Origin: Chalara sp. BL73
Lineage: Eukaryota; Ascomycota; Leotiomycetes; Helotiales
Reading direction: 5' to 3'
Assembly: GCA_918026815.1 (NCBI GenBank)
Contig: CAKJVC010000016.1
Location: 1 to 64,000, forward strand
DNA length: 64,000 nt
Shown: positions 32,057 through 43,010 of the stretch, piece after piece
Numbering within the stretch: position 1 is the first letter of the stretch
How the letters are laid out: every line of letters begins with the position of its first letter
Notes under the pieces: generated by a model
The model's input: the letters and a program-made list of their open reading frames with translations, nothing else
What the model was told of the DNA's origin: nothing
Database searches by the model: none
Made by a program: the position numbers and the translations under genes

Positions 32057-33594
32057 ATACTAATTAAATGTTGAGTATGTCAAAGCACCCATAATCATGT
32101 CTCGCCTTGTGAGACCCCATCTCTCAATGTCCAATAGGACCTATATAACACGCCAGTGCGATATCTTCAAAATTTATCCAATTACCGAATCGAGTTCCAA
32201 AAACAAAATCTACTTCCCGCCACTTTGTTGAATTTTAATAACAAGACTTACCATTATCTAGTAAGCCTTAGTATAGTCTAGTAAGCCTTGCGATAATCCA
32301 GCTCCAAGCATACACTGTAATCAATATTCGTAATGTAAAAAGTTGGCAAGGTCTCAAATGTAGCTAGTCATGTACTGACATTAAGTAGCCGGTACGGTGT
32401 AACCAGCCTTCTAAAAGACAAAAAACCTGTAACGAGTCCCCATAACTAATATTCAGCTTGTATAATTCCCAGATGTAGCCAGTTATGTACTAGCATTAAG
32501 CAGCCTGCGCGGTGTAATAAACGCTCCGAAAAGCGAAATACCTCATCTCACTCTGCATGACCTCTGACAAACGGCAAAAATCACATGCTTCTTGCCGAAG
32601 TACTATTGCGCCTTATATATCGTTCAACAACTCCCGAACCCACCAGTAAATGTCAGGCAGTTACAACGGTTTGATCAGCGTTTAAAACGTGGAGCGCCTG
32701 GCAAGAAAACTACACATGGAATTGAGCTCTATGAAATTCCGAGAGAGCTCAAGGCCGTAGTAGCATGTCACTTTCGGGAAAGTAGCCAATTATCGACGAA
32801 TGTGGGAAAGCTGCTTATTTGAGTATATGGCGGGATAAGCCTGTGCTTTGCGTTTTTGTTAGTGTAGTTTAATTGTCAAACGTATTAAAGTGATAGTACA
32901 AACAAACCAGAAACCACCAAGCAATTACTAAGGTCTAAATCACAAAACTGAATAATAGAATTCTACAAAATTTAACTGCCAGTAGTAAAAGCGACTCAGG
33001 ATAAACTGAAAACAAACTCCGCTCCCGCAATATTCGACAAGCCAAACAGCGACAAAGTGTCAGTTCGGTGTGTTAAAGCAAAGAAGTATACAAAGATAAC
33101 AAGCTTCAAGAATGTTCAAACACAAATAATGATAATAATAATAATAATAGAAAGTGTTGCTTTTAAGCTTTTCCGAGCTCCGGTCACTAAACCAACCTTC
33201 AAGTAGTTAATATGAAACTAGCAGCGAACAGCCAAGGTTTTAAGCATCGATAAACTTCGAAAATAATAATGTATAACTTGCCAAAAAAAGACACATTCCG
33301 AAAATTTTCCATAGAAGCAATAGTCAACTATTATGTTTTGTGCCTTTGAAACGGCCACAAATTGCGAGTCAAAAAAAAAAAAGCAAAAAGTCCGGTCCAA
33401 AAATCAAGAAATAAACATCATAAGTATCAAAAAAGAGGTATAAAGAAATAGAGAATCGAAAAAAAAAGGGGATAAAGAAATGTGTATCAAGAAAATAAAA
33501 TAATGTTGACTATCGCTTGGTGGATACGTACGAGATTTGTTCAGGGACAATACAGTATAATATTAAGATTGAATAAAACATCAAATACGTAGCC
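32057..33594. other. AT-rich gene-poor stretch with degenerate repeats
   Basis: No supportable gene; a 76-codon frame at 32592-32822 has no recognised relatives. It holds a 20-bp tandem duplication at about 32257-32296, an imperfect 80-bp direct repeat (separate entry), a (AAT)n run near 33125-33150 and several poly-A tracts at 33370-33470. The base composition contrasts with the genes on both sides. Confidence 0.5.
32356..32550. repeat. Imperfect direct repeat with transition-type differences
   Basis: Two copies of about 80 bases (32356-32435 and 32471-32550) offset by 115 bases, both containing ATGTAGC-AGT-ATGTACT and ATTAAG-AGCC. Most differences are C/T or G/A, which is compatible with RIP-like decay of a duplicated sequence. 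Confidence 0.6.
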
Positions 33595-33666
33595 GGGCTT
33601 GTGGTTTAGTGGTATAATACTCCCTTAGCATGGGAGTGGTCCGGGGTTCGATTCCCCGCGAGTCCA
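33595..33666 (+). tRNA. tRNA-Ala (AGC)
   Basis: 72-nt cloverleaf. The acceptor stem GGGCTTG/CGAGTCC includes the G3-U70 wobble pair that identifies alanine tRNA. The D arm is TGGTTTAGTGGTATAATAC. The anticodon stem-loop CTCCC-TTAGCAT-GGGAG has anticodon AGC. The T arm CGGGG-TTCGATT-CCCCG is standard, and the discriminator is A. There is no intron. The A and B boxes (GTGGTTTAGTGG; GGGTTCGATTC) form the internal promoter. Confidence 0.95.
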
Positions 33667-33943
33667 GAAAGATCGTTCAAATCGGTCATTATACCTTGCC
33701 TTTTATCTTTTTTGTTGATGTTGATGGAAGATTTGAGGGCTGGATTGTTGAGTGTTTTTGCTTTTGCGGTTATGCTTGGGGGCGAAACACTTGGCGTATC
33801 TCGGAAAATGAGCATTGTGGATCCAGAGTGGATAGCGAGATGGCTTATGCGGCTGTAGCTAAAGTGGAAAACTCAGGTACAAAGCGGATATATTTTTACA
33901 TCGTAGCTATTTCATATACAATTACAATTGGAGGATATCCTCA

Positions 33944-35018
33944 TTAGAGCCCGACAAGTTTCAACGAATCCTCCCACAGTTGCTTCTCATTCTCCTTATC
34001 GAAAGCATACTTCGCAAACCCATCCCCTGCTAACGGAATATCACTTTGCGTCAAAGTCGCCTCTTCCGCATCCTCCAAAAACAGCCTCCCCCTTCCTTCA
34101 AACTCCTTCCCCATAGCAGCTACGATAGTGGTCGCAGCACCCTGCTCCGTGCTCTTCATCATCGCCTCGACGCCAGGCGTGCTCTTCCACCCTTGCATTT
34201 GCTCCTCGGAGACGAATTTCTGCAAACCCGTCCAGATTCCACCAGGATGCAAACTCAACCCATGAAGACCCTGCGAGCCATACCGGTTCTCGATCTCGTT
34301 CGCCATATAGATATTTGCCGTCTTCGCTTGACCGTAGCCTAACCAAGGCGCATACTCAGTCTTCTCATAGCCATAATCTCCGAAATTGACGCCGCATACA
34401 CGATGCGCGGACGATGAGACGTTCACTACCCGGGAGTGGAAGTCTGGCGTCGAGGACGCCAGCAGGGTGTCCTTAAGGAGGTTGAAGAAAAGGAAATGCG
34501 CTAGATGGTTGATGCCAAACTGTGTCTCGAAACCGTCGGCTGTCTTGCCTTTGGGGGTGGCCATCACACCTGCGTTGTTGACGAGGACGTTGAGGGTGGA
34601 ACTTTTGCTGAGGAATGTCTTGGCTGCTTGCCTAACCGAGGCGAGGGAGTTGTTATCCATCTCTAGGAGCTCGACGCGGCCGGGCTCAAGGAAGGAAGCA
34701 CAGGCTTCTTCACCCTTTTTTAGGTCGCGAACCGTGAGGAATACCTTACCGCCTGTTGCGGCGAGGGCCCGGCCTGTTTCGACACCGATTCCTGCTGAGC
34801 CGCCTGTTACGATGAAGACCTTGATTTAAATTAGTACATAGTTCATAGTTCATTTACGGATGGCGATCTCTTTGGATTGTTGGTATGTGATGAAAGCGTA
34901 CCTTGTCGGTCAGCTTGCCTTCGAGTCCATTGTCTTTGATGATTTGAAGAGCAGTAGGACGAGCGTCACCAGGACCTTTCAAATTTTCTGTCTTATGAGA
35001 TTCGGTATATCTTCCCAT
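33944..35018 (-). CDS. Short-chain dehydrogenase/reductase
   Basis: 330-residue NAD(P)-dependent oxidoreductase of the SDR family, closest in style to retinol-dehydrogenase/WW-oxidoreductase-like fungal SDRs. ATG at 35018 (MGRYTESHKTEN). One 82-nt intron, 34820-34901, joins KLTDK to VFIVTGGSAGIGVETG in frame. The cofactor motif TGGSAGIG, the NVLVNNAGVMATPKG block, the catalytic Ser in VVNVSSSAHR and the YGQAK (YxxxK) pair are present, followed by LHPGGIWTGL. It ends WEDSLKLVGL at 33944. The substrate is not predictable. It is transcribed convergently toward the tRNA gene, whose 3' end lies about 280 bases from the SDR stop. Confidence 0.93.
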
Positions 35019-35980
35019 TTTGATGATATTGATGAAGGCTATTTGGTTTGTCTATGGAATTCTGTGGGATTGGTTTGTAAGGATTGAGCAGGTTGCTCAG
35101 ATGAGATGTCAGTCAGTAAACTATCCATCTTCATATGAAATTGCATTGTTTATATATGTCATGTTGAGCTCAAACCCGGACGTCCTCTAGAACGGACGTA
35201 GACGGCTTTGAAGTAGTCTCCGCTTAAGGTCCGTGGCTTGATAAATAATTGGATACTGAATCAAAGGTGGGGATTGGTGCCATATGTGGGGCTGGAGTTT
35301 GGAACGGATGGTCATGTCAATCATGAACCATGCACCACACAGCGCAACTCGAGGTTCTGAAACCAGAGGCTAGTCTCGGAATTAAGGCGTCTATATCCAT
35401 CTGCCATGAGGAAGGGAGGGATGGGCCATGAAGTCACCAATGCATCGCTCACCTCTAAGCATGCAAACAACAGCCTTTGGATGGAAGACAATTGTTCCTA
35501 CCATGTTAATGCAAGAATTTGGCGGGGTCAAACATCCGGACTGTGGCGGAAGATAAATCTTGCACGACATGATTGACAAACGTGCCACTCGAAATCAGCA
35601 CCGGGAAAAACCAAAGTCGCAGTCTATAACGCGTCCACAAATCCTCCAGAGTGATTAGAATACTTGCCGACAAAAAAAGGGCCTCAAGCTTTGTTGACAC
35701 AAAAGATATCTAAGCAGGAAGCCATGTAGGCAGAAGGTCGTCTGGCGGTCGTGATGTCGGAACCCAGATATGGTTTTGGTACTTGCCAATAGTTACCTAA
35801 CTATGTAGGCCACATCCTATTGATTGTCATCATATCGATGACACTGTGGCGAAGCAATTTATTATATCCGTAGGACCCCTTATCTATTAAAGGGCTTAAA
35901 GACAGCCATTCACGGCTTTTCTAAGCCTGATCTATGATATATCCCCCTGCAAAGCACAACCTTCCATTCCAAGACATTCC
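35019..35980. other. Intergenic region
   Basis: Upstream region of the dehydrogenase and 3' region of the next minus-strand gene. No gene or repeat seen. Confidence 0.4.
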
Positions 35981-37212
35981 TTAGGCATTCTCCTCTGCAA
36001 CCTTCCTTGCAGCCCTCAAAATCACCCCCTCCAAGCCCTGCGCATCTCTGGCGCACCTCTCCCCTTCTCCGGCTGCGACCGCTAGTCCATCCCCTCCCTT
36101 ATTTCCTCGCAAGAATGCCATTGCCTTCGTTCTCATGGTATGTATCTCCAAAACCGGCCACAAGACCCCCCCTTGATCTCTCAACACTCGCTGTGTATAC
36201 CCCCTCAACGTCCGCTCGCTCTTCTCATCCAGCAAGCAACACCGAATCTCATTGCATACTTCAGCTTTCTCATCGCCATGAGGAATATGTTGTAGCTGGT
36301 CCTCGATTGAATGTCGAATGTCGGCTTTCTGCTTGTTTTCAAGCATGGCCATGGCACCTTTGACACGAGCAATATCTCTGAAGCGTTCCGTACACTCCGG
36401 GTACTTTGTCGAGAAGACTCTTATCCCCTCAAAGCTGTTCGGACCCCAGGTGCTGGCTGTGCTCATAGCACGAAATGCTCCGATTTTTACATCGATGGAC
36501 AATCCGTGTGTTACATGTCTGAGGTAACTGCCCGCAAGGATATCAAAAGCGGAGAGCTGGAGAGCTTTCAGATTCTCGATGAACTTGTTGTATTCGCGTG
36601 TATACTCCCAGAGTGGGACTTCGTGTTGTGCCTCAAACGGTGATTTGGCGAGCGAGAACAAAACGTCCATATTGAAGGATCGCGCTTCCAGCAATTCCTG
36701 TTTCGTCATTAGCATGGAAAGAGAATAAAAGTAGAGATTCGTACAAAAAGCTTCAACTTATGCTCTGCCCACAAGCCCTTCAAAATCTCGAACCTCTCCT
36801 CTGCTCTCAGATGTCTAACCATCTTTACAACATCCTCGCCCATCTCCTTGAAGACCTTCTCTAGAGGCGTGAGATTTGGCAGAGATTGGGCTAATGGCAA
36901 TGCCTTTCCTCCCACTCCACTGCTGACAATAACAGCGAACTTCTGTCGAGCCTCGGGCGGAATCTGAAAAGTCACAATTTTCTGCTTCTTGGGCCGTCCT
37001 TTCTTCTTGATCGCACTTCCAAATCTAGGCTTTGTTGGGGTGTCCTGAATCTTGACTGCCCTGTTATTTTTGTTCATTTTCGGTGCTGCAGGAACTTCAT
37101 TTCGTCCATTTCGTGAACCTCGAGTAGGGGTTTCTGGGCCTGTGATGCTGGGTGCGTAGGAGCTGCATGAAGAGCGACGACGCTTCTTAAATTCAAGTGA
37201 TAAGGAGAGCAT
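35981..37212 (-). CDS. Hypothetical basic, helical protein
   Basis: 394-residue protein of unknown function, ATG at 37212 (MLSLSLEFKKRRRSS). One 47-nt intron, 36698-36744 (GTACGA...GCTAATGAC...CAG), joins AEHKLKLF to ELLEARSFNMDVLF. The N-terminal 90 residues are disordered and rich in Lys, Arg, Ser and Pro, with basic clusters KKRRRSS and IKKKGRPKKQK. The latter resembles an AT-hook core and a nuclear localisation signal. The remainder is predicted helical (EKVFKEMGEDVVKMVRHLR; FRDIARVKGAMAMLENKQK). Lineage-specific fungal proteins of this style are common. A nuclear location is an inference. Confidence 0.75.
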
Positions 37213-39269
37213 GGTTACGTTGGCGTTGCGTTATTGTGAGATTGAAGGAGTTCTTAGAGGTAGCTGTTGATAAGAAAGAGGAGAGGGATCAAAAAAGTCT
37301 TGGTGGAGTCGTGGTTTGAGACATTCACCTTTGAGAGGGTGTTTATTCCTTTCCTAATTCGGCCAAATTTTCACCTCTTATAGCTGAGCTGAATAATATC
37401 TCTGAGATAGGGCTGGAGTCTCACGCACCTTCAGTCCCAAGCTGAGGAGTTTATCGGAAGACTCGACGGATACTGTCGATGGGAGATGCAAATCCAGCTT
37501 CAAGGGTTTGTTTGCTTCTTGTACTACGCGAATACGACTAATCAATATCTACAGCCCAGCCGGTTTGTGGCAGATGTTTGTATGTCATATGCATGTGAGT
37601 TGTCAGAAGCCTCTTTTAGGGCCAGATGTAGAGCGGATCGAATCGTGGTTGTCTATTATTAGCAGGCTATATGTCTACAGGAAGAATTTATCAATGGTAA
37701 TCAGCATTTTACTCTCAACCGAAGTTAAGTTTTATACGCATTTTTCGCACGCCGAACTCTGTGCTATAATGTGTATATATCTGTAACTTTTTTGCTGCTC
37801 GTAAAATTCTTATTAAGATGCAGTAAATTGGCCTAAATTTGCGCTGGTGTTGCTCACCGGCCTTGCGCAACTTAACATTTAGTTGCCTCGCCAAGGCGCT
37901 CATGGAAGAAGGGAAGATATCTCTAGGTATGAAACCTCATTCTTTGGGTTGTATACTGGGAAACTCCATGGATCGCTCCGGGAATTTCGTCTTCCTAGTG
38001 ACCAGTCAATATTAGTCGACATTTGTTTAGACTCTGTTCACGACTTTGTCGAAAATGATTTAGACTGATCAGCATGTTCAACACAGTTCTGCCATGGTAG
38101 GCAAGGCTCGGAAAGCTGGCTATTCCGGCACCTTCAAATTGTGCAAGGCAGAGTGTGTGCAGATTCAATGTAGCATTTCGTACTGACATATTAGAAATCT
38201 GTTCCCAGTAGGACTCGCCCGCCGAGCTGCAGCAAGCATTGTATGGTGGACTTTTCACGTTCAATGTTTAAAAATATTAGTATCTTGGAAAGGTGAGTCC
38301 CCTCACATGATTCGTTCTAGGGATGACGTAAAGCATTGTATGTGGGAATTTTAATGTAAATGTTGATACGTTTTGATACATTGAAATGCGTCCTCCCATG
38401 ATTCAATCCACCAACGGTGCCAAGGAGTGAATGTAGATATTATTGTGTTAATGCCACCAATTGATGCATTGAGAGTGTAGTCCCTTTAAGGATTCCATTT
38501 CTTAGACATGCAGAAGCACTATATGTCAGACCTCTCATGTTCGATTTTCATAATTTTCGACGCACCAGAAATTCGCCTTCTCTGGTCTCAAGGAAACTAT
38601 ATTATCATTCGCCTAGAGTGTCACTCCATGTTGCATCGCTACAAAGTCCCGTGCCTCACGCCCGCTCGTTTCTTGGAGCATAGATAGATTCACAGTATCC
38701 TGCTACCTATCCTGTTAGGTGTACTTAAGACACATCTGGAGATATTATGAGAGCTTTTGGTCCTCATAGACAAGTAGTACTATTGCAGGCAGTGGTCAGT
38801 GATAAATGCATGATTCAAGTTTGACGAGGCAGCTTGCAGCCATGCTTCAAAGTTGGCCTTAATTCGAAAGGAAAGCTGGATATGAGGATGCCAAGAAAAC
38901 CACGAATAGATTCTACTCTAATCAAGTCCTCCCGCTGTGTGGTAAATGTTGCAAAGTGTGATGGATTTGTTACACACTTCTGTTCAATTTTTTCTGGAAA
39001 TTGAAGACTGATAAGTATATCTTGTGCTTTACGTCTCTGCTGGTCTGGCGTTTGCCCAAGATGGCATCATGTGCGGCTGGAATAAGCTGAAAGAAAAATT
39101 GACCCGACACCGAATCAGGACAAGACAACTAACACGAATCCGAATGGTCGCATGATACCTTAGCTCAGAATAGAAATTCGATCCGGCCGTTGCTCAATCT
39201 ATTATAAAGTCTCTGTACACCCTTGCGGTCCGAGTTCCCCAGCTCAGCAACAGCTCCAGCAAATCCACC
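37213..39269. other. Gene-poor intergenic stretch
   Basis: About 2 kb without a convincing gene. Two degenerate units about 95 bases apart (38235 and 38332, both beginning AGCATTGTATG and later containing CCTC-CATGATTC) suggest an old local duplication. A TATA-like ATTATAAAG near 39202 precedes the repeat-protein gene. Confidence 0.4.
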
Positions 39270-40235
39270 ATGAAGCTCTTCCATGTCCTAGCCCTTACGA
39301 CCTTTGCCTATGCCCTTCCTTCTGCAGGGCCAGCATACGGTAGTGCTCGAGTTACTCGCAATGAGGATGATATAGAGCGCGCCAATAGATTAGCAAGAGA
39401 TCCGAACGATGGTGGACTTGTTTTGGACAAACGATCGCTCCCTGTCATAGCGGCTCTAATCAAACGTGATGGCCACGACGCCAAGAAGCGGGAGACCAAT
39501 TTAGAGACCGAGAACTCGAAGATGTGGGGAAGAGATGGATCGAAGTCAAGTAGTGGTGCTCATATTTCTAAGGACTTGCAAGACAGGGCGGACGAATCTG
39601 ACAACCGGGATTGGAGACGCAGTGTGCAAGACAGGGCGGGCGAATCTGACAACCGGGACTGGAGACGCAGTGTGCAAGACAGGGCAGACGAATCTGACAA
39701 CCGGGACTGGAGACGCAGTGTGCAAGACAGGGCAGACGAATCTGACAACCGGGACTGGAGACGCAGTGTGCAAGACAGGGCGGACGAATCTGACAACCGG
39801 GATTGGAGACGCAGTGTATTTGTGCATATTAGGAATGTGGAGGCTCGCACTGAGAGTTCGATACAATCTAGTGGAAAAAGAGATCTGGAGGCGAATGTTG
39901 CGAAGACACGGGCACGAGAAGCGAAGCCGCCGGCAAGGTTCGAAAAAGATGCTTCTACTGATGCTCCAAACGGCTCCTGGAGGAGAGAAGAGGTGGCGAG
40001 GGGAGCGGGGCCGCCTGAGTTCGCTCATAAGGATAGTCCGATTAACCGTGTTGTGAGAGAAGTTGACGAACGTGAGAGTCTGGCTTTTGGGAATGGCGCG
40101 TACGGCGTGTACGATGCACAGGAGCAGACTAAACGGGGCAATCAAGAGAGACGCACCGAAGACGGAGGAGGAGGTGTTGCAGGCACAGGTGACTATGTTA
40201 TTTGGTACAAGTCCTCTGGCTCGTCGAAAGAATAA
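39270..40235 (+). CDS. Secreted Kex2-processed repeat protein (peptide precursor candidate)
   Basis: 321-residue single-exon secreted protein, ATG at 39270. The N-terminus MKLFHVLALTTFAYALPSAG is a signal peptide. Dibasic Kex2-type sites follow (LDKR, LIKR, AKKR). Residues 103-182 are five tandem 16-residue units VQDRA(D/G)ESDNRDWRRS. Cleavage after each Arg-Arg would release four copies of a 14-residue peptide, SVQDRADESDNRDW (three) or its Gly variant (one), plus a longer piece from the first unit. More dibasic sites lie downstream (SGKRDLE, SWRREE, TKRGN, ERRTED). The tail is Gly-rich, ending DYVIWYKSSGSSKE. The layout matches fungal kexin-processed repeat precursors such as pheromone, repellent and dikaritin-type precursors, but the peptide matches none that I know. 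No UstYa/DUF3328 gene or tyrosinase is visible in the window. Confidence 0.85.
   Translation: MKLFHVLALTTFAYALPSAGPAYGSARVTRNEDDIERANRLARDPNDGGLVLDKRSLPVIAALIKRDGHDAKKRETNLETENSKMWGRDGSKSSSGAHISKDLQDRADESDNRDWRRSVQDRAGESDNRDWRRSVQDRADESDNRDWRRSVQDRADESDNRDWRRSVQDRADESDNRDWRRSVFVHIRNVEARTESSIQSSGKRDLEANVAKTRAREAKPPARFEKDASTDAPNGSWRREEVARGAGPPEFAHKDSPINRVVREVDERESLAFGNGAYGVYDAQEQTKRGNQERRTEDGGGGVAGTGDYVIWYKSSGSSKE
39576..39815 (+). repeat. Five 48-bp tandem units within the repeat-protein gene
   Basis: Exactly 5 x 48 bases, each coding 16 residues. Units differ only at a few sites: GCG/GCA, GAT/GAC, one GAC-to-GGC (Asp to Gly), and TTG for GTG at the first codon of unit 1. The outer units 1 and 5 share GAT-TGG while the inner ones have GAC-TGG. 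Near-identity at synonymous sites points to recent expansion or gene conversion. Confidence 0.95.
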
Positions 40236-40661
40236 GCTTCCGTGTTTGCTTTGTAGTAGTAATGTGATTTATTATTTAGCAAACTGGCACGCTTTAGCTT
40301 GAACTTTCGATTCAAATAATTTTAAAGCTTGTCCAAAAGCATTAACTTTAGTTTTTATTCTTTGCACTCGACGTATAACCGAGCTCTTTAATAGATAATT
40401 GAAGATAATTAACCTATATATCTATATCTATATCTATATATGTAGTACAAGACCCCCAAGCCTTTGCCAAGCATTTCCTTAAATATCCTGGCGACATGAC
40501 GCTCAGCGGCATGTTGAGTACGAGGAATAACTTCGGAAAATTAAAGTTTTTGAACACCGTTTAGAATAAAAACTGAAATCAAAGGTTCAATTAAAGCTTT
40601 TTTCGAGGAACGAGAAGGCGGAACCTCTTAAGATTAAATTATCAGACGGACTATCTGGTGT
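40236..40661. terminator. Convergent 3' intergenic region
   Basis: AT-rich spacer between the repeat-protein gene and the convergent AFG2 gene. It contains a (TATATC)n microsatellite at about 40412-40442. No gene. Confidence 0.5.
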
Positions 40662-43010
40662 TCATATATCGTATCCATCAGCCCAAGCTTTGTATTTCTG
40701 CACCATTGCAAGCGTGACCTGCTTCTTGACCTTCGGTATCGCATCCAAAAGATCATTCATCTGCACAACTGCATTCTCGAATTCGCCTAATGCTACACAT
40801 CGATCGATCACAGTATCAGCTGCCACTTGACAGATATTCACGATTTCTGCACCAGTGTATCCATCTGTCTCTTGGGCCAACCTGGTTACATCGACGTCTT
40901 CCGCACAAGCCATCTTGCGCTGCCGAAGTTTGAGGATGGCCTCACGACCTTCTAGATCTGGTGGTGAAACATATATCAGATCATCAAATCGACCTGGTCT
41001 CAAGAGTGCCAAATCAAGCGACTCAGGCTTGTTTGTAGCAGCCAGCACAGTGACACCTTCCAAGGTTTCAATACCATCCATCTCATTAAGTAGTGTTGTC
41101 AAGACATGAACACCACTATTTCTGGCTTCTCGCTTTGCACCTATCGCCTCAATCTCATCAAAGAAGATGATGCTCGGGCTTGCTGCTCGTGCACGAGCAA
41201 AAATATCGCGCACAGCTCGTTCAGATTCACCTACATACATGTTGAGAAGTTCGGCACCTTTTACGGCGAAGAAATTAAAGCCTGCTTCTGTGGCCATGGC
41301 CTGTGCGGAGAGAGTTTTGGAGCATCCTGGTGGCCCATATAAAAGAATGCCCTTCTTAGGCGTTGTGCCAAGGCGTCGTAACAGTTCAGGATGCTGCGGC
41401 TGTTAGTATTGGTGCAGAAAGGATGGATTTCCAGCCTAAGCTTACTTTCATCGGAATCTCTACTGCACGTTTTAATGCCCTCTTCGTGTGTTCTTGTCCA
41501 CCAATATCGTCCCACCTAATCTTCGGTGGCTGTAGTGTGACATCGTGCATGGCTGTTGGACGCACAGCAAGAAGAGCTCTCTCCAGATCCTCATAAGTAA
41601 TCTCTCCTTTGATGGGTTCCTCATTAGGGTTGCGCTGATAAACTCGGCTCTGCATAACTCTACAAGCTTTTTCTAGCAAAAGACGAAGATCCTTTCCCGT
41701 ATAAGCATGGGTACGTTCTGAGATGTCTTTTATGATGGCTGGGTCAGCCTCCAGATCGGAAGCTGCTATGATAGACTGCAAAATCTGATGCCGAGCTGTA
41801 GAATCAGGAACGGGAAGCACAATTCTTTCACCAAATGCACCAGGTGTATACAGAGATTGAGGAAAGCTACTGGGAGTTTTAGCAGTCGCAATAACCACAA
41901 CTCTGGCATTTGAGCCCTTCTCATACGACAGTTGTCGCATCTCTTTGAGTAACGACTTCGCAAATACTCCACTCTTGCTCAGTTCAGGAGCGATCATGGT
42001 TTCAAGATCATCGAGTACAATAATACTTGGCTCAGCAATGACGGCGTTCATAAATATTGCACTTAGACCGTTGGGCTTTGTTTCTTCTGTCACCTCAAAG
42101 ACTGACCATTGGGAGTCACGAATAATTTTCTCGACTAGATAAGTCTTGCCAGTTCCTGCCGCTCCGTGAATGGCTATGCCTTTGCTGTAGAGTAATGGCG
42201 GGCTCCATGGCTGACCAAAAGGTCGCAGGAAGTCATTGAGCTTCGAAAGAGCTTCATCAATACCAGCAATACCAGCAATTTTGAGATCTTTTCGCGGTTT
42301 CGGTTCATCAGTAACAATATCCTCGCCTTTTATGATGATTTTGACTGATGATGATGTATCGAACTTCATCAATGAAGCTGTAGAAGCGTCGTCACTAATA
42401 GATGATACCACAAAGCGTCGTTTGTATGGAGCATCACCAGACAGAAACTCCAAAGACATGCCTTCAAAAACAGTATTGGCTCTTTCTATAATGCATCAGC
42501 ACTATGCTTAGAACATAAATAGAGCTGGAGTAATAATATATCATGTATTAAAATGTACATAGAGATTCGCCCTATAATGACTGACTCACCAAGTTTGTAC
42601 TTTGCCAACACCTCCCACATCTCCTTGTGGCTCTCTAAGGCGGCAACAGTGCTCTCAACTTCTGTCAAAAGCACTGTCTTGGCCACGCGAAGCTCTCCTG
42701 CTGGTGCAACAGAAAGTTTATCTTCGAGTTTGAAACCACACACATCTTTGAAAGACGGCCACATTTGTAAGGCGGTCTTTCCAAGATTTTGAGAGACTGC
42801 AGCATTCCAAGCGATGCCCATTCGCCTCTCAGCCCCATCTTCGCCATTGGGCTTCCATATGAAGCATGGCTTCCCGATCGATAATCTCAAGCTTTGTATT
42901 GCATCACTTGAGAATAAAACACGTGGTGTGTCTTGTTGATCTTCTCGAGGTTTCCCATTTACAGGACGAACCTTGAATTCCTGGGACTTGGCTCCAGTAG
43001 TAGACGACAT
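40662..43010 (-). CDS. AFG2: AAA ATPase AFG2/Drg1 (60S ribosome maturation)
   Basis: 732-residue type II AAA ATPase of the CDC48 clan. In yeast, Afg2/Drg1 is a cytoplasmic hexamer that strips shuttling factors such as Rlp24 from pre-60S ribosomes. ATG at 43010 (MSSTTGAKSQEF). Introns are 42486-42589 (104 nt) and 41400-41445; both keep frame. The N-domain (residues 1-150, with IQSLRLSIGKPCFIWK) is followed by D1 with Walker A GAAGTGKT and Walker B IIVLDD, then D2 with Walker A GPPGCSKT, Walker B IIFFDEIEAI, ATNKPESLD and the arginine-finger region LLRPGRFDDLIYV. It lies slightly below yeast length (780). The D1-D2 linker DIGGQEHTKRALKRAVE is typical. The assignment over CDC48 or PEX1/6 rests on the short N-domain and the lack of a long tail. 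Confidence 0.88.

What the first reader, a model, noticed from the sequence alone, without database searches (positions are those of the whole stretch)
39270..40235. Unrecognised secreted peptide precursor with five Kex2-bounded 16-residue repeats
Seen directly: a signal peptide, several Lys-Arg sites, and five tandem 48-bp units coding VQDRA(D/G)ESDNRDWRRS, each closing with Arg-Arg. Known: fungal kexin-processed repeat proteins use this plan for alpha-type pheromones, hyphal repellents and dikaritin RiPPs. Inferred: release of SVQDRADESDNRDW, a highly charged 14-mer with one terminal Trp. It lacks the Tyr of ustiloxin-like cores and the Cys/Trp pattern of Pezizomycotina pheromones, so it would be a new peptide type. 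Near-identical units suggest the repeated peptide sequence is conserved by conversion or selection.
Basis: partly seen in the sequence, partly recalled or inferred. Interest (0 to 1): 0.82.

Follow-up and report, generated by a model that had tools for sequence, protein, structure and literature searches.

The report
Fungal secreted repeat-peptide precursor gene
A mould gene appears to encode a secreted protein that is cut into small tryptophan-ending peptides, one of them repeated five times; such genes are common in fungi, and the one relative found, in another fungus, has that repeat only once.

Summary
The reading frame, the secretion-signal-like start and the 48-bp x 5 array are real. Two corrections: unit 1 begins LQDR, not VQDR, and no dibasic site opens it, so only four 14-residue pieces are bounded on both sides (three SVQDRADESDNRDW, one SVQDRAGESDNRDW). 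By two published definitions it is a Kex2-processed repeat protein (KEP), a large, diverse known class. Three searches of 5.8 billion proteins gave one relative, B0O99DRAFT_684443 of Bisporella sp. PMI_857. With the array collapsed, 212 of 241 aligned residues agree, but the relative has ONE unit plus a different Trp-ending core. So the array is a young lineage-specific amplification or homogenisation. It is not the canonical alpha-pheromone, which is encoded elsewhere with 13 CG[KR]PGQPC cores. None of 89 UstYa matches lies on its contig or the overlapping one, so a dikaritin-type cyclic peptide is unlikely. Best reading: an orphan KEP releasing linear, acidic, Trp-ending peptides. Processing, expression and activity are inferred. 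Against: dibasic sites are not above composition shuffles, Trp zones are not better conserved, and the Asn-before-Trp pattern fails a corrected test.

The parts
39270..40235 (+). Single open frame, 321 aa plus stop; predicted secreted peptide precursor
   Evidence: relative P0002 aligns from the first to the last residue
39270..39314 (+). Putative signal peptide, residues 1-15 (MKLFHVLALTTFAYA), AxA-type cleavage site before LP
   Evidence: inspection; 14 of 15 residues kept in P0002; no predictor run
39429..39491 (+). Pro-region dibasic sites KR54-55, KR65-66, KKR72-74, all kept in the relative
39492..39527 (+). ETNLETENSKMW, a single Trp-ending stretch followed by GRD; identical in P0002
39576..39623 (+). 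Unit 1, LQDRADESDNRDWRRS; closed by RR but not opened by a dibasic site
39624..39671 (+). Unit 2, VQDRAGESDNRDWRRS
39672..39719 (+). Unit 3, VQDRADESDNRDWRRS
39720..39767 (+). Unit 4, VQDRADESDNRDWRRS
39768..39815 (+). Unit 5, VQDRADESDNRDWRRS
39876..39881 (+). KR203-204; its Lys lies in a 7-residue stretch absent from P0002
39966..39986 (+). PNGSW-RR, another Trp-ending stretch with dibasic site RR238-239; identical in P0002
40131..40154 (+). KR288-289 (kept in P0002) and RR294-295 (RG in P0002)
40188..40205 (+). C-terminal GDYVIW, kept in P0002; not closed by a dibasic site

Best explanation
An orphan Kex2-processed repeat protein (KEP) of a probably helotialean fungus. Inferred route: the signal peptide takes the chain into the secretory pathway; Kex2 cuts after KR/RR; a Kex1-type carboxypeptidase trims the basic residues; and linear, unmodified, acidic peptides ending in Trp are secreted, mainly SVQDRADESDNRDW (three copies) and SVQDRAGESDNRDW (one), with single longer Trp-ending pieces from the flanks. 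One ancestral unit was recently amplified to five by tandem duplication in this lineage (or five were homogenised here and reduced to one in the other). The likely role is an extracellular signal or a lineage-specific effector or antagonistic peptide; nothing here separates these. Shown: sequence, array, one relative with one unit, a Kex2-type domain in the genome, a separate alpha-pheromone gene, no UstYa match on the two contigs that carry the locus. Inferred: expression, secretion, cutting, trimming, peptide activity.
For: Signal-like start, no other membrane-like stretch, no Pfam family. Four RR-bounded pieces of 14 residues plus RR, 17-20% of 321 residues, against published thresholds of at least 3 repeats of at least 8 aa (PMC7329392) and at least 15% of the length (PMC6339444). 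A relative conserved along its whole length (E 3.1e-112; 212 of 241 aligned residues identical after collapsing the array), with 5 of 7 non-array dibasic sites and the unit's RR kept. Every Trp is followed within two residues by K or R: 8 of 8 in P0001 (shuffle P 0.0001) and 5 of 5 in P0002 (P 0.003); with residue and offset left free, the best pattern in P0002 is Arg 2-3 residues after Trp, 5 of 5, P 0.013 and 0.009 in two shuffle runs. A P_proprotein (PF01483) domain, typical of Kex2, at C63. AlphaFold2 gives no confident fold (mean pLDDT 38.7; two rows only, so weak).
Against: No expression, secretion or peptide data. [KR]R sites are not enriched over composition (P 0.10 in P0001, 0.12 in P0002). 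Trp zones are not better conserved than the rest: 56 of 63 against 142 of 163 identical, Fisher P 0.82. P0002, with one unit, would fail the KEP repeat criterion. Two of seven non-array dibasic sites are not kept. The Asn-x2-3-Trp pattern was noticed after the fact: P 0.0002 as chosen in P0002, but about 0.23-0.25 when residue and offset are left free, so not significant; in collapsed P0001 the best pattern of any kind is 3 of 4, P 0.73. No Ste13-type XA/XP signature follows the cuts of the array.
Confidence: 0.66

Rival explanations
1. A secreted, intrinsically disordered protein that is not cut into bioactive peptides; the array is a selectively near-neutral coding minisatellite of a young orphan gene.
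For: One relative found in three searches; one unit in it; dibasic count not above composition; Trp zones not better conserved; Asn pattern not significant when corrected.
Against: Reading frame, signal-like start and most dibasic sites are kept at 88% identity outside the array; every Trp lies within two residues of a following K or R in both proteins.
Confidence: 0.22
2. A dikaritin-type RiPP precursor whose cores are cross-linked by UstYa (DUF3328) enzymes.
For: KEP layout; the genome has 89 UstYa matches, counted exon by exon; cross-links need not use Tyr (victorin uses a C-terminal Phe, passages of PMC9233826); the conserved tail GDYVIW resembles the EDYXI core quoted in PMC6339444.
Against: None of the 89 matches is on C13 or on the overlapping C90, while in KEPs that have DUF3328 companions these lie on average 3.09 genes away (PMC7329392); the repeated core has no Tyr; GDYVIW occurs once.
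Confidence: 0.07
3. The alpha-type mating pheromone precursor of this fungus.
For: Kex2 layout; an STE2-type receptor gene is present (C122).
Against: A canonical precursor with 13 CG[KR]PGQPC cores is encoded elsewhere (C8); this core has no Cys, no GQP and no Ste13 spacers.
Confidence: 0.02

Closest known systems
Kex2-processed repeat proteins (KEPs) as defined in PMC6339444 and PMC7329392
   Same: Secretion-signal-like start, several dibasic sites, at least three near-identical short pieces between them, no Pfam domain, narrow distribution in the searches made
   Different: The only relative found has a single unit, so the repeat itself is not conserved; 7 dibasic sites lie outside the array
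Basidiomycete KEPs with Trp-ending cores (C. cinerea KEP 490115, PMC9769878; XSDW motif, PMC6339444)
   Same: Cores end in Trp; in KEP 490115 the RR site is cut (PMC9769878, section read)
   Different: KEP 490115 carries Ste13 XA/XP motifs and short cores (QYKAPSW); no basidiomycete protein came up
Dikaritin precursors (ustiloxin, phomopsin, asperipin, victorin)
   Same: Signal peptide plus Kex2-bounded multicore layout
   Different: No UstYa match on the two contigs that carry the locus, no Tyr in the repeated core
Pezizomycotina alpha-pheromone precursor
   Same: Multicore secreted precursor; one is present in this genome
   Different: This gene lacks the CGxPGQPC core; the canonical one is on contig C8

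Membership tests
KEP (PMC7329392, PMC6339444) | N-terminal signal peptide | tested here: inconclusive
   By inspection and hydropathy only; no SignalP available
KEP (PMC7329392, PMC6339444) | At least 3 tandem repeats of at least 8 aa between dibasic sites | tested here: met
   Four 14-residue pieces plus RR in the window gene; the relative P0002 has one and would not meet it
KEP (PMC7329392, PMC6339444) | Repeats at least 15% of the protein; no transmembrane segment | tested here: met
   4 x 14 to 4 x 16 of 321 = 17-20%; Kyte-Doolittle maximum 0.74 after residue 25; TMHMM not run
KEP (PMC7329392, PMC6339444) | Peptides released by Kex2 in vivo | not testable with these tools
   Needs peptidomics; a P_proprotein domain is in the genome
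Dikaritin RiPP | UstYa/DUF3328 gene in the cluster | tested here: not met
   89 matches genome-wide, none on C13 or C90
Dikaritin RiPP | Cross-linkable Tyr (ustiloxin/phomopsin type) in the repeated core | tested here: not met
   SVQDRADESDNRDW has no Tyr
Pezizomycotina alpha-pheromone | Cys-bounded GQPC-type core | tested here: not met
   No Cys after the signal peptide; canonical precursor on C8
Pezizomycotina alpha-pheromone | Ste13 XA/XP spacers after the Kex2 sites | tested here: not met
   Array pieces begin SV directly after RR

The most novel reading that the evidence does not exclude
A multi-peptide pro-hormone-like precursor caught in the act of becoming a repeat precursor: it carries several different single peptides that end in Trp before a basic site (ENSKMW-GR, GNYNW-DKR, DNRDW-RR, PNGSW-RR, possibly sharing Asn-x2-3-Trp), whole core modules are gained or lost between related species, and one core has just been amplified fivefold in this lineage.
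Probability: 0.2. Interest if true: 0.45.

Novelty: new member of a known kind. Interest (0 to 1): 0.26.

Why it matters
If the peptides are made, this is a two-genome example of how KEP repeats may arise: one unit in one fungus and five near-identical units in a related one, with the rest of the precursor kept at 88% identity. It predicts copy-number variation among strains and gives exact masses to look for. On its own it adds one orphan to a class already surveyed as 7878 proteins, 2560 of them without homologues (PMC7329392, abstract).

Tried and rejected
Paralogues in the genome: P0001 (4 matches) and P0002 at E up to 10 (12 matches) match only this locus, its near-copy on C90, and C27:1293800-1293949 (E 0.3). 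The C27 locus has no tandem array and its frames do not look like a secreted precursor: rejected as chance.

The C90 match was first read as a possible broken paralogue. C13:32833-40459 matches C90:381386-388950, running to the very end of C90. In the 6.0-kb part aligned base by base there are 7 mismatches and 54 positions missing from C90, 32 of them within one 500-bp bin, and none missing from C13; the other 1.6 kb has 0 mismatches and 8 gap positions. Inside the reading frame there are three one-base deletions. That looks like an assembly redundancy with uncorrected read errors, but the upstream flanks of the two contigs disagree, so a real recent duplication is not excluded.

Distant relatives: three protein searches gave P0002 only. 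One search scored just the 7994 candidates that shared most words, so a distant relative could be missed there; searches had 49 and 133 candidates. Solved structures: one match, a lysozyme at E 1.4, taken as chance. Alpha-pheromone patterns: none at 0 mismatches; one looser match in no frame that looks like a secreted precursor; 14 matches at 2 mismatches against 6 for the reversed control, two of the 14 lying 0.5 kb apart on C8, which proved to be the canonical precursor.

Tests against the reading: dibasic enrichment, conservation of Trp zones, and the free-choice motif test. I first took the P of 0.013 as the corrected value for the Asn pattern; one search showed that it belongs to Arg after Trp, and that the Asn pattern has about 0.23 (0.25 from the counts). 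The odds of the best reading and of the novel case were lowered slightly for that.

Papers: the strings DNRDW, ADESDNR and VQDRADES were searched as free text (listing only): 4 papers hold DNRDW, none on a fungal peptide by title; none holds the other two. Bisporella occurs 0 times in the main text of either KEP survey; their supplementary tables were not read. A search for the strain gave one paper, on other gene clusters (PMC10734572, passages).

Full report
What is there. The + strand frame 39270-40235 encodes 321 residues with a signal-like start, 12 [KR]R pairs and an in-frame 48-bp array of five units at 39576-39815. In the TRF register the units differ at three nucleotide positions, one of them replacing Asp by Gly; unit 1 also starts with Leu where the others have Val. 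Cutting after KR/RR, with 15 residues removed as signal, yields thirteen pieces; four are 16-residue array pieces (SVQDRA[D/G]ESDNRDWRR), because unit 1 is the end of a 43-residue piece. So the finding stands, with four rather than five doubly bounded repeats.

Host genome. The window is contig C13:1-64000 of a 58.66-Mb assembly in 199 contigs. The only relative found is from Bisporella sp. PMI_857 (Leotiomycetes, Helotiales), so the host is probably a helotialean fungus; its species was not established. A second, near-identical stretch ends contig C90 (381386-388950) and matches C13:32833-40459. It also carries five units. In the 6.0-kb part aligned there are 7 mismatches and 54 positions missing from C90. 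I take it as assembly redundancy, with the caveat that the upstream flanks of the two contigs disagree.

The relative. P0002 (276 aa) aligns end to end. With four units of P0001 removed, 212 of 241 aligned residues are identical (88%). P0002 has a single unit (DLQERADESDNRDWRRG) and, before it, a 31-residue stretch missing from the window gene that contains the core DKQLNGNYNW-DKR. The window gene has stretches of 7 and 9 residues missing from P0002, the first supplying the Lys of KR203-204; P0002 has four further residues near its C-terminus. Of seven non-array dibasic sites in P0001, five are kept in P0002 and two are not (read). The five units agree with one another at 14-16 of 16 residues and with the P0002 unit at 12-14 of 16, as expected if they coalesce after the two lineages split, though so few residues prove little. 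Recent expansion here is the simplest account; contraction in the other lineage plus homogenisation here cannot be excluded without an outgroup.

A shared ending. All Trp residues (8 of 8 in P0001; 5 of 5 in P0002) are followed within two positions by K or R (shuffle P 0.0001 and 0.003), and 7 of 8 and 4 of 5 have Asn three or four positions before. Because these patterns were noticed after the fact I also let residue and offset vary freely. In P0002 the strongest pattern is Arg 2-3 positions after Trp, 5 of 5, P 0.013 and 0.009 in two runs; the Asn pattern, 4 of 5, has P about 0.23-0.25 and is not significant; in collapsed P0001 the best is 3 of 4, P 0.73. The Trp-containing zones are not more conserved than the rest (56 of 63 against 142 of 163; Fisher P 0.82). 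So 'Trp just before a basic site' has modest support, and the idea of several related Trp-ending peptides is a lead, not a result.

What it is not. Pfam gives no family and AlphaFold2 no confident fold (mean pLDDT 38.7 on two rows). The canonical alpha-pheromone precursor of this genome is another gene: on C8, 375 aa, 13 CG[KR]PGQPC cores, with an STE2-type receptor on C122. UstYa (PF11807) has 89 matches in the assembly, counted exon by exon and so not a number of genes; none is on C13 or C90. In the survey of 7878 KEPs 22% had such a companion, on average 3.09 genes away (PMC7329392, section read).

What it most likely does. By the published definitions (PMC7329392 Methods section on detection; PMC6339444 Methods section on the pipeline) the window protein is a KEP, with the signal peptide judged by eye only. 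The inferred route is signal peptidase, Kex2 (a P_proprotein domain is on C63), Kex1 trimming (Kex1 was not searched for), and release of linear acidic 14-mers ending in Trp (net charge -3 or -2, masses). Trp-ending KEP peptides have been detected by mass spectrometry after expression of a Coprinopsis KEP in Pichia (QYKAPSW; PMC9769878, section read), so the product type has a precedent, although no sequence relation was found. The biological role is open; narrow distribution and rapid module turnover fit a lineage-specific signal or antagonistic peptide, and equally fit weak constraint.

Verdict. A real gene architecture, correctly spotted, belonging to a known and very diverse class; new as a sequence family of two known members, not as a kind.

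Noticed in passing
window 32833-40459: The same stretch forms the end of contig C90 (381386-388950), but the upstream flanks of the two contigs disagree (no match of C90:343000-381385 to the window at E 1e-5): an assembly conflict, a heterozygous rearrangement or a recent duplication.
   Followed up: partly
L027 699-1826 (-), contig C8: Alpha-pheromone precursor with 13 CG[KR]PGQPC cores; each of the 13 is followed by G[KR], and 7 of 13 by GRDA rather than a dibasic site. The window gene has a similar GRD after ENSKMW, a hint that GR(D) may be a processing site in this lineage.
   Followed up: partly
window 40188-40205: The C-terminal GDYVIW is kept in both proteins and resembles the EDYXI core quoted for ustiloxins and phomopsins, but occurs once and is not closed by a dibasic site.
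   Followed up: no
whole genome G000: 89 UstYa (PF11807) matches, counted exon by exon, spread over many contigs: this fungus may have several cyclic-peptide clusters.
   Followed up: no
window 40662-42459 (-): Two frames with AAA ATPase domains, probably exons of one AAA protein; the downstream neighbour of the precursor gene.
   Followed up: no
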